DNA of 64,000 bases, from positions 124,001-188,000 of the forward strand of contig NZ_JACVOM010000002.1 in the NCBI RefSeq assembly GCF_018882445.1. Direction: 5' to 3'. The translations under genes and the position numbers were made by a program. Below the pieces are notes generated by a model. That model was not told the DNA's origin and did no database searches. It was given only the letters and a program-made list of their open reading frames with translations. Shown here piece after piece: positions 29,208 to 30,752 of this stretch (positions are counted from its first letter, which is position 1; each line of letters begins with the position of its first letter). Origin of the DNA: Polynucleobacter sp. 15G-AUS-farblos. GTDB lineage: Bacteria; Pseudomonadota; Gammaproteobacteria; Burkholderiales; Burkholderiaceae.

Positions 29208-29492
29208 TTAACCAAATAAATCACTATGACTACCAAGTCTGGCAAGACGCAAAATTTCTGGATTAGGCTTCTTATAGATCAGGAGGACATCAGGCTTGAT
29301 ATGACATTCGCGATGCCCAGCCCAATTTCCAATCAAATCATGATCTCTCAACTTATTGGGCAACAAAATATCCATTATTAAGAGATCTATGACATTCAGC
29401 AGAAGCCTCTCTAAATCTTTTTTATGTCTTGAGTTTGCATGAATACGCTTGAAGTCCCTTTTAAATATGGATGATCTTTCAATCACCCGCAT
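29208..29492 (-). CDS. yafQ: YafQ-family mRNA interferase toxin
   Basis: This is a 94-residue RelE-superfamily toxin, expected to cleave mRNA on the ribosome. Compared with Escherichia coli YafQ, the catalytic histidines and acid are in place: DHDLIGNW (His50), CHIKPD (His63 and Asp67) and GSHSDLFG (His87 and Phe91). The Trp that follows the Asp in YafQ is Val here. The ATG at 29492 overlaps the end of the antitoxin gene by 14 bases, the usual arrangement for DinJ/YafQ pairs. It appears intact. Confidence 0.9.
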   Translation of the reverse strand: MRVIERSSIFKRDFKRIHANSRHKKDLERLLLNVIDLLIMDILLPNKLRDHDLIGNWAGHRECHIKPDVLLIYKKPNPEILRLARLGSHSDLFG

Positions 29493-29745
29493 TCAAATCC
29501 GCCATTAATGCTTTACTTGTTTTAAAACGCTTGCCCCTTCCAGATTCGAGCTCGGCAATTGCTTTTTTAGTGGTGGAATTAGGCACCTTTACTGTAAAGG
29601 GCAGTTGCTTCTCATCCGCAATTCGCAACATCAGCATTCTTATCGCATCCGAAATAGATAAACCCATCGCCTCAAGGGCATCCGAAGCTCTATTTTTAGT
29701 AGCCATATCAATCCTGGCGCGTACATAGGTATCTGAAATAGTCAT
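29479..29745 (-). CDS. dinJ: DinJ/RelB-family antitoxin
   Basis: The 88-residue protein begins MTISDTYVRARIDMATKNRA and contains the ribbon-helix-helix core ASDALEAMGLSISDAIRML typical of RelB/DinJ antitoxins, which bind their own operator and neutralise the toxin. The start is the ATG at 29745, with GGAG seven bases upstream. The open frame upstream (to 29829) runs through the operator and is not coding. An 11-base inverted repeat lies 24 bases upstream. Confidence 0.9.
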   Translation of the reverse strand: MTISDTYVRARIDMATKNRASDALEAMGLSISDAIRMLMLRIADEKQLPFTVKVPNSTTKKAIAELESGRGKRFKTSKALMADLNAGD

Positions 29746-29768: not shown

Positions 29769-29797
29769 AAAATGTAGTCACATTGAGACTACATTTT
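29769..29797. promoter_or_regulatory. Palindromic operator candidate of the dinJ-yafQ module
   Basis: Perfect 11-base arms, AAAATGTAGTC at 29769-29779 and GACTACATTTT at 29787-29797, are separated by seven bases just upstream of the antitoxin gene. Ribbon-helix-helix antitoxins bind such palindromes to repress their own operon, so this is the likely operator. That role is inferred. Confidence 0.75.
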
Positions 29798-29815: not shown

Positions 29816-29841
29816 AAAAAGGGGCTCAATAGCCCCTTTTT
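29816..29841. terminator. Rho-independent terminator between the ParD-like gene and dinJ
   Basis: An A-run, GGGGCT stem, CAAT loop and AGCCCC stem with a T-run form a symmetric terminator. On the minus strand it would end transcripts from dnaX-ybaB-recR-ParD-like and isolate the toxin-antitoxin operon. Confidence 0.85.
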
Positions 29842-29869: not shown

Positions 29870-29899
29870 TTAGCGGCGATCCATTAACGCTCGGGCTAA
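29870..29899 (-). pseudogene. Remnant of a second recR 3' end
   Basis: Ten codons read LARALMDRR then TAA, the same nine residues that end the intact RecR (30138-30167, TAG stop). The DNA matches at 25 of 30 bases and all five differences are silent. Homology stops immediately upstream of these codons, next to the end of the ParD-like gene. This is a direct repeat of the recR tail from a diverged allele, flanking the ParD-like gene. Confidence 0.75.
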
Positions 29900-29915
29900 G
29901 AGAATACTTATAAGA

Positions 29916-30134
29916 TCATCCAAATTTGAATGGAGTAAGTTTTCTTTCCTGAACTTCTTCAATGCTTGCTAATACATCCCGAAGTAGTTGAACTGGCAAA
30001 TCAGGATTCTCCTCTGCAGCCTTACCCAAACGAGCCCAGTATTCAATCTGCTCGGGAATAGACCGGTTCATAGCCTGCGCGCAGGACTTTGCATCCTTCA
30101 CTAAAAAATCAGATAGCTTAATAGGCTTAGACAC
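29916..30134 (-). CDS. ParD-like antitoxin (orphan)
   Basis: The 72-residue protein begins at GTG (MSKPIKLSDFLVKDAKSCA) and has the features of the ParD-like antitoxin family (PF11903): AMNRSIPEQIEYWARLGKAAEENPDL. These are predicted DNA-binding antitoxins, often without a recognisable toxin. No partner toxin frame adjoins it. The GTG is three bases after the recR stop with no good ribosome-binding site, so translation probably depends on recR. It is enclosed between the recR tail and its diverged repeat. Confidence 0.8.
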   Translation of the reverse strand: MSKPIKLSDFLVKDAKSCAQAMNRSIPEQIEYWARLGKAAEENPDLPVQLLRDVLASIEEVQERKLTPFKFG

Positions 30135-30137
30135 AAT

Positions 30138-30752
30138 CTAGCGGCGATCCATCAGCGCTCTGGCCAAAGTACCGGCATCAACATATTCAAGCTCACCACC
30201 AACCGGAATACCTCTGGCAATTCTGGTGACTTTGATGCCTTTAATCTTGAGTACTTCACCGATGTAATGGGCAGTAGCCTCACCTTCACTCGTGAAGTTG
30301 GTGGCCAGCACCACTTCCCGAATAGGCACTCCTGTATCAGGAGCTTCAATACGGGCTAGCAGTCGATCAAAATGAATTTCATTAGGGCCCATGCCATCTA
30401 GGGGAGAGATGCGGCCCATCAATACAAAGTAATTACCTTTGAAACTTAAGGTTTGCTCAACCATCACTTGATCGGCTGGCGTTTCCACAATACAAAGTAG
30501 AGATGGATCACGGCGCTCATCAGCACAAGTGCTGCAGATTTGCGTTTCAGAAAAAGTGTTGCAACGAGCACAGTGCCCAACTGTTTCGACAGCCTCACCT
30601 AAGGACTGCGCCAATACGGCTGCGCCATTACGATCATGCTGCAATAAATAGAAAGCCATACGTTGAGCAGACTTAGGGCCTACTCCTGGTAGAACACGTA
30701 ATGCCTCGATCAATCGACCGAGTGCATCTTGAGGCGCTTCATGACGTGCCAT
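30138..30752 (-). CDS. recR: Recombination mediator RecR
   Basis: RecR works with RecF/RecO to load RecA on gapped DNA. The 204-residue protein has a helix-hairpin-helix ([17 protein letters not shown]), a four-Cys zinc finger ([16 protein letters not shown]), and a Toprim domain ([17 protein letters not shown]). It ends in LARALMDRR. It follows ybaB by 26 bases in the conserved dnaX-ybaB-recR order. Confidence 0.96.

What the first reader, a model, noticed from the sequence alone, without database searches (positions are those of the whole stretch)
29870..30167. Duplicated, diverged recR tail brackets a ParD-like antitoxin gene
Seen: the final codons of RecR (LARALMDRR plus stop) recur at 29870-29899 with 25/30 DNA identity and only silent differences, and the ParD-like gene lies between the two copies. 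Silent-only divergence means the second copy came from another recR allele, not from a fresh local duplication. Inference: foreign DNA entered at the recR 3' end while restoring recR, a pattern of 3'-end integration sites, leaving the old operon terminator (29816-29841) beyond it.
Basis: partly seen in the sequence, partly recalled or inferred. Interest (0 to 1): 0.65.

Follow-up and report, generated by a model that had tools for sequence, protein, structure and literature searches.

The report
Recombination scar behind recR gene
A leftover 30-base piece of another recR allele marks where toxin-antitoxin genes have been swapped behind recR in Polynucleobacter, leaving an antitoxin gene whose toxin is gone; the process is of a known kind, but this site records it clearly.

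Summary
The last 30 nt of recR (30138-30167) recur at 29870-29899, 25/30 identical with only silent changes, beyond a ParD-like (PF11903) gene; 300 simulations of the region never exceeded 20/30. An empty site exists: in 8 of 130 genus loci recR is followed directly by a RelB/YafQ module like the window's. Three further loci carry a second recR tail behind another insert: 54 nt after a ParD-like/ParE-like pair, and 92 nt (twice) after a MntA/HepT-type pair. Tail length varies and the inserts hold only toxin-antitoxin genes, so an integrase attachment site is unlikely. I read it as a recombination scar at a toxin-antitoxin exchange hot spot between recR and an OprB-like porin gene: one end recombined in recR, the other joined illegitimately inside the recR tail, losing the ParE-like toxin and leaving an orphan antitoxin. 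RelB/YafQ is itself exchanged DNA: 92-96% identical to G103/G178, against 72-86% for other genes compared. Which side is resident is not settled. The nearest known process is effector displacement leaving orphan immunity genes in Vibrio.

The parts
30138..30752 (-). recR (204 aa), ends in the proximal tail
   Evidence: ORF; RecR and Toprim Pfam domains
30138..30167 (-). proximal recR tail, LARALMDRR plus TAG
29916..30134 (-). ParD-like antitoxin gene (72 aa, GTG start 3 nt after the recR stop); orphan as far as tested: no PF15781 match in the genome
   Evidence: PF11903 E 9.4e-17; own-genome searches (one more PF11903 gene on C10); comparison with toxin-paired relatives
29900..29915 (-). 16-nt junction of unproven origin between the antitoxin stop and the distal tail
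   Evidence: the antitoxin end GGATGATC matches the antitoxin/toxin overlap in 6 of 14 paired relatives
29870..29899 (-). distal recR tail (another allele), remnant
   Evidence: 25/30 to the proximal tail; followed by terminator and RelB/YafQ as recR itself is in L085 and L112
29816..29841 (.). terminator-like hairpin, present behind recR in empty-site relatives
   Evidence: read in sequence and alignment
29769..29797 (.). 14-nt inverted repeat upstream of relB, perhaps its operator (inferred)
29479..29745 (-). RelB-type antitoxin
   Evidence: PF04221 E 7.2e-20; 95.9% and 91.8% DNA identity to L112 (G103) and L085 (G178)
29208..29492 (-). YafQ-type toxin
   Evidence: PF15738 E 6.4e-29; 94.0% and 93.0% DNA identity to L112 and L085
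27605..29020 (-). OprB-like porin gene, the far border of the hot spot
   Evidence: PF04966 E 3.7e-26

Best explanation
This is a recombination scar in a toxin-antitoxin exchange hot spot between recR and an OprB-like porin gene in Polynucleobacter. Shown: empty sites in relatives; second recR tails of different length behind different toxin-antitoxin modules; a RelB/YafQ module shared across species at above-background identity; a ParD-like antitoxin with no PF15781 toxin in the genome. Inferred mechanism: incoming DNA from a relative carrying recR, ParD-like and ParE-like genes recombined homologously with the resident recR, perhaps near nt 450 of the gene. Its far end was joined illegitimately about 30 nt before the stop of the resident recR. 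This kept a complete recR, lost the ParE-like toxin, kept its antitoxin and left 30 nt of the older recR in front of the terminator and RelB/YafQ, a module that had itself been exchanged. The order is the least certain step. The confidence given is for a scar with one homologous and one illegitimate end, whichever side was resident; rival 1 is a variant of it and its odds lie inside this figure.
For: Second recR tails in 4 of 130 loci: window 30 nt, L182 54 nt, L145 and L153 92 nt, with inserts ParD-like alone, ParD-like plus ParE-like, and MntA plus HepT type. Empty sites with RelB and YafQ in L085, L086, L099, L112, L123, L142, L165 and L168; for L182 a comparable empty site in L084 and L167. 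Tail differences, synonymous/non-synonymous: 4/0 in the window, 6/2 in L182, 15/1 in L153, 2/2 in L145. RelB and YafQ are 92-96% identical to L112/L085, while dnaX, ybaB and recR are 82-86% identical to the same genomes and two other 4-kb stretches 79-84%. G159 ranks first for the window's recR in every 120-nt window up to nt 510, second at 420-540, then 30th, 17th and 38th. 52 of 130 loci have a toxin-antitoxin seed hit between recR and the porin. No PF15781 toxin in the genome. In L145 and L153 the insert is 99% identical while recR is 88-93% and the upstream 3 kb 84%.
Against: Polarity is unresolved: the distal tail is 26/30 to L085 and 25/30 to both L112 and L084, so 30 nt cannot tell resident from donor. 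The only close relative, G159, is a 77%-complete assembly, and its own recR end may be the one that changed: for G159 the window is still the best match there. The drop in identity is weak (Fisher p 0.013 to 0.27 depending on the break tried, uncorrected, chosen after seeing the data). In L182 the proximal tail is 49/51 to L167 and the distal tail 42/51, the opposite of a simple 'distal is resident' reading; but its distal tail and porin are nearest to L131/L103 and L131, so L182's own background is mixed. L145's tails do not show silent-only divergence (2/2). The 16-nt junction matches neither recR nor ParE-like genes clearly better than shuffles do.
Confidence: 0.72

Rival explanations
1. 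Reverse polarity (a variant of the best explanation): the resident had recR, ParD-like and ParE-like genes; the incoming DNA was the distal recR tail, terminator and RelB/YafQ, anchored in the recR-porin intergenic region, and it overwrote the toxin.
For: RelB/YafQ is exchanged DNA. The stretch right of YafQ is slightly nearer to G159 (89.9% over 148 nt) than to L112 (89.1% over 128 nt) or L085 (84.8% over 191 nt), which allows an end of the import there. Replacement explains the missing toxin. The distal tail is contiguous with RelB/YafQ as in L085.
Against: The end of the window's recR is not most like G159, which this model neither needs nor explains; G159 has no ParD-like gene behind recR.
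Confidence: 0.25
2. Toxin-antitoxin genes travel as circles or cassettes carrying a recR tail and integrate by a single crossover at recR, so the tails are the arms of a passive mobile cassette.
For: In L182 both the recR end and the sequence after the distal tail are L167-like (94.0% and 94.6%) while the insert and distal tail are not, as a crossover near the stop would give. In L145/L153 the 92-nt distal tails differ more (90%) than the sequence on either side (99%), suggesting recombination within tails.
Against: In the window the distal tail is contiguous with RelB/YafQ as in empty-site relatives, which a circle does not need; [quoted passage not shown] coli (passage of PMC2884548); no circle was looked for or seen.
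Confidence: 0.12
3. Site-specific integration at the recR 3' end by an element-encoded integrase that restores the gene end.
For: The gene end is complete and duplicated, with an insert between; an empty site exists.
Against: Tail length varies (30, 54, 92, 92 nt). Between recR and the distal tail there are only 238, 617 and 798 (twice) nt, occupied by toxin-antitoxin genes, which leaves no room for an integrase gene; one acting from elsewhere was not searched for.
Confidence: 0.03
4. Local tandem duplication of the recR end followed by drift.
For: Direct repeat in the same orientation.
Against: The differences are silent only, and the distal copy continues into a context that relatives have directly behind recR.
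Confidence: 0.03

Closest known systems
Displacement of type VI effector genes leaving orphan immunity genes in Vibrio cholerae (PMC5361080, abstract and passages seen)
   Same: A conserved upstream region as the proposed homologous anchor, illegitimate joining at the other end, the toxin gene lost and its protective partner retained.
   Different: There, secreted effectors and immunity genes in long arrays; here, type II toxin-antitoxin modules behind a housekeeping gene, with a remnant of the anchor gene itself as the scar.
Homology-facilitated illegitimate recombination (PMC3240628 abstract and outline; PMC2884548 passages)
   Same: One homologous end and one illegitimate end, giving insertion or replacement of short segments.
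   Different: Shown experimentally in other species; here only inferred from sequence. The listings showed no such work in Polynucleobacter.
Integrative elements that restore the 3' end of their target gene (recalled, no call)
   Same: A target-gene 3' end duplicated on both sides of an insert.
   Different: No integrase in the insert, no fixed repeat length, tiny inserts.

Membership tests
Scar of homology-facilitated illegitimate recombination | Foreign segment joined to a stretch of homology on one side | tested here: inconclusive
   Exchanged RelB/YafQ is clear; a foreign recR end is suggestive only
Scar of homology-facilitated illegitimate recombination | Non-homologous join at the other end, at a position that varies between events | tested here: met
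   Second tails of 30, 54, 92 and 92 nt; no clear homology found for the 16-nt junction
Integrase-mediated gene-end insertion | Fixed-length duplicated core in independent insertions | tested here: not met
   Lengths 30, 54, 92 and 92 nt
Integrase-mediated gene-end insertion | Integrase gene in the insert | tested here: not met
   Window: PF11903, PF04221 and PF15738 genes; three other plus-strand ORFs and one minus-strand ORF of the recR-porin interval match no Pfam family. L182, L145, L153: toxin-antitoxin genes fill the inserts
ParD_like antitoxin (PF11903) | Profile match over the curated cut-off | tested here: met
   61.2 bits against 23
Type II pair of ParD-like with ParE-like (PF15781) toxin | Cognate toxin gene present | tested here: not met
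   No PF15781 match in the genome; a toxin of another family as partner was not tested
Type II pair RelB/YafQ | Adjacent antitoxin and toxin families with open frames | tested here: met
   PF04221 and PF15738 over cut-off, overlapping ORFs
Type II pair RelB/YafQ | Toxicity and neutralisation | not testable with these tools
   needs an assay

The most novel reading that the evidence does not exclude
The end of recR is a standing exchange port. Toxin-antitoxin cassettes circulate among Polynucleobacter species with a piece of recR as a homology handle and no integrase of their own. The ParD-like antitoxin that repeatedly sits 0-3 nt behind the recR stop is kept by selection as a translationally coupled anti-addiction gene of the recR operon.
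Probability: 0.13. Interest if true: 0.6.

Novelty: new member of a known kind. Interest (0 to 1): 0.32.

Why it matters
Toxin-antitoxin genes turn over fast in chromosomes, but direct traces of how single modules are swapped are seldom legible (general knowledge, not searched). Here a remnant of the anchor gene, empty sites and three kinds of insert are preserved at one place, so the route (recombination anchored in a housekeeping gene, with loss of the toxin and retention of the antitoxin) can be tested. It also shows that a duplicated gene end need not mean an integrase.

Tried and rejected
Chance match: rejected (with at most 3 mismatches allowed, finds only the distal copy itself). Fresh local duplication: rejected on silent-only divergence. 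Fixed integration site: rejected on variable tail length and lack of room for an integrase. Tracing the 16-nt junction to recR or to a ParE-like gene: for the 22-nt stretch 197 (recR) and 24 (ParE-like) of 200 shuffles scored as high, for its last 14 nt 134 and 40 of 200. Settling which tail is resident by nearest relative: 30 nt are too few. A plasmid source: 34 plasmid records match at 60-80% identity, none over 80% of the query; the best covers 38%, and the eight rows listed are RelB/YafQ matches (phages not searched).

Second tails in other loci: 96 further loci (80 named loci, several of which duplicate genus genomes, and 16 more genus genomes) gave ten loci with a repeat hit at E 0.01; two touch the recR end, L082 (31/37 nt at +40) and L018 (74% over 47 nt at +2742, E 0.007, probably chance). 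In one search, hits in L090, L112, L113, L123, L154, L181, L204 and L211 were dropped because they do not cover the recR end. Of 173 genus genomes with recR (own genome included) 146 were examined downstream (130); 27 were not. The first 30 of the 130 hold only 1.5 kb beyond recR. In the recR segment comparisons 9 of 130 loci were left out because their recR does not align without gaps over 612 nt. In the ParD-like tree two rows under 50 aa were left out (36 of 38 kept).

Full report
Observation. The window's recR (30138-30752, minus strand) ends in a 30-nt stretch that recurs at 29870-29899 with 25 of 30 identical positions; the differences are silent. Sequence simulated from the same dinucleotide frequencies gave at most 20 of 30 in 300 trials. 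Between the copies lies a 72-aa ParD-like antitoxin gene (PF11903) that starts 3 nt after the recR stop. Beyond the second copy lie a terminator-like hairpin, a RelB/YafQ pair (PF04221, PF15738) and an OprB-like porin gene (PF04966).

Empty site. recR was found in 173 of 186 genus genomes. For 130 of these I oriented the locus and read what follows recR. In eight (L085, L086, L099, L112, L123, L142, L165, L168) RelB starts 128-137 nt and YafQ 381-390 nt after the recR stop, with no ParD-like hit between and no second tail. In L085 and L112 the recR end, terminator and upstream region of relB align closely with the window's distal side. The distal tail therefore stands where a recR gene end stands in these relatives.

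Not unique, not fixed. Second recR tails occur in 4 of 130 loci. L182 has 54 nt behind a ParD-like/ParE-like pair; a relative's ParE-like protein of the same seed family is PF15781. L145 and L153 have 92 nt behind a nucleotidyltransferase/HepT pair (PF01909, PF01934), followed by another ParD-like gene. Differences between tails are mainly silent in three of the four (4/0, 6/2, 15/1) but 2/2 in L145. The insert is therefore not one element and the repeat is not one length, which speaks against an integrase attachment site. Sixteen further genus genomes and 80 named loci gave no clear additional case (L082 is doubtful).

A hot spot. Between recR and the porin gene, 52 of 130 loci have a hit to one of the toxin-antitoxin seeds, 7 have a DUF6282 gene (PF19799, weakly amidohydrolase-like; 4 of the 7 also have toxin-antitoxin hits), 59 have neither and a porin hit within 300 nt, 6 have neither and a more distant porin, and 10 have neither and no porin hit (tblastn E 1e-5, some hits weak, partial or on the other strand).

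Where the pieces come from. Over dnaX, ybaB and recR the nearest of the eleven relatives compared is G159 (88-94%); G103 and G178 are at 82-86% there, 79-84% over two other 4-kb stretches and 72-83% in the porin and the genes beyond (G178's contig ends in that stretch). RelB and YafQ, however, are 92-96% identical to G103 and G178, although this module is only 73-81% identical to that of the other carriers listed. It is therefore exchanged DNA, in one direction or the other. Right of YafQ G159 (90% over 148 nt) and L112 (89% over 128 nt) are about equally close, L085 less so. In the last 150 nt of recR G159 falls from first to rank 30, 17 and 38 among the 120 compared, which suggests that this end of recR was exchanged too. 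But the drop is statistically weak, and G159 itself may have changed.

Mechanism. I favour homology-facilitated illegitimate recombination: a donor fragment with recR, the ParD-like and the ParE-like gene pairs with the resident recR, and its other end is joined without homology about 30 nt before the resident stop codon. This step is inferred. It accounts for an intact recR, a silent-only second tail and an antitoxin without its toxin. The genome has no PF15781 protein, and the antitoxin ends in GGATGATC, as at the stop/start overlap of 6 of 14 paired relatives; only the last two bases of this, beyond the stop, are informative. The reverse order (RelB/YafQ with its recR tail overwriting the toxin) is the main rival. 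In L182 the proximal recR end and the sequence after the distal tail both resemble L167 while the distal tail does not, which fits insertion of a unit carrying its own recR tail; but L182's porin is nearest to L131 and its distal tail to L103 and L131, so its background is mixed. The events need not have had the same polarity.

The antitoxin. In 12 of 130 loci a ParD-like gene starts 0-3 nt after the recR stop; L113 has a broken form. None of the 12 has a full ParE-like hit behind it; L149 keeps a remnant. Of ten pairs of such genes compared, eight have dN/dS 0.14-0.22, one has no non-synonymous change (two synonymous), and one is saturated at synonymous sites. Of the pairs with the L145 gene, which sits behind a second tail, one gives 0.17 and one 0.53 on few changes, and L145 against L153 is undefined. 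The window's gene gives 0.15 and 0.12 against two toxin-paired genes; L149 against L089 is saturated. Two pairs of toxin-paired genes give 0.02 (all). So the coupled genes look relaxed but still constrained. They fall on one side of a weakly supported branch (74/79). Whether they are kept for a function is open. The genome has one further PF11903 gene elsewhere.

Literature. The closest described process is the displacement of type VI effector genes in Vibrio cholerae with retention of orphan immunity genes (PMC5361080, abstract and passages). Illegitimate recombination assisted by homology is discussed as a source of small variable segments in PMC2884548 (passages) and reported at low frequency in E. 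coli conjugation in PMC3240628 (abstract and outline). Searches for toxin-antitoxin, competence or recR work in Polynucleobacter, for recR as a toxin-antitoxin hot spot, for ParD-like antitoxins and for orphan antitoxins listed nothing on this site by title or abstract start; those papers were not read, and lists were cut at 10-12 rows.

Verdict. A real and well-preserved scar of an ordinary kind of process.

Noticed in passing
window 29916-30137; also L087, L100, L101, L110, L130, L133, L149, L151, L171, L178, L179 directly after recR: A ParD-like gene without a full ParE-like neighbour starts 0-3 nt after the recR stop in 12 of 130 loci and stays under moderate constraint, suggesting translational coupling to recR.
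   Followed up: partly
L145 and L153, from recR stop to +1110: A MntA/HepT-type pair plus a ParD-like gene is 99% identical between two genomes whose upstream 3 kb is 84% identical, while the 92-nt recR tails between and beside them differ by 10-12%: sign of exchange and of recombination within the tails.
   Followed up: partly
L149, first 360 nt after recR: The ParD-like gene has a 3' end like toxin-paired forms and a 5' end more like coupled forms, followed by a remnant of the ParE-like toxin: a probable hybrid.
   Followed up: no
L163, +9 to +89 after recR: Partial match to a ParE-like toxin directly behind recR, perhaps another decayed insertion.
   Followed up: no
L082, +40 to +76 after recR: A short repeat of the recR end (31/37 nt, partly in frame) in a betaproteobacterial assembly outside the genus.
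   Followed up: no
L084, L099, L101, L157, L167, L182, L184: A DUF6282 gene (PF19799 in L084; the others by tblastn) occupies the same recR-porin interval in 7 loci, so the hot spot is not limited to toxin-antitoxin genes.
   Followed up: partly
window 29769-29797: A 14-nt inverted repeat (93% complementary, 1 nt between the arms) upstream of relB, perhaps its operator.
   Followed up: no
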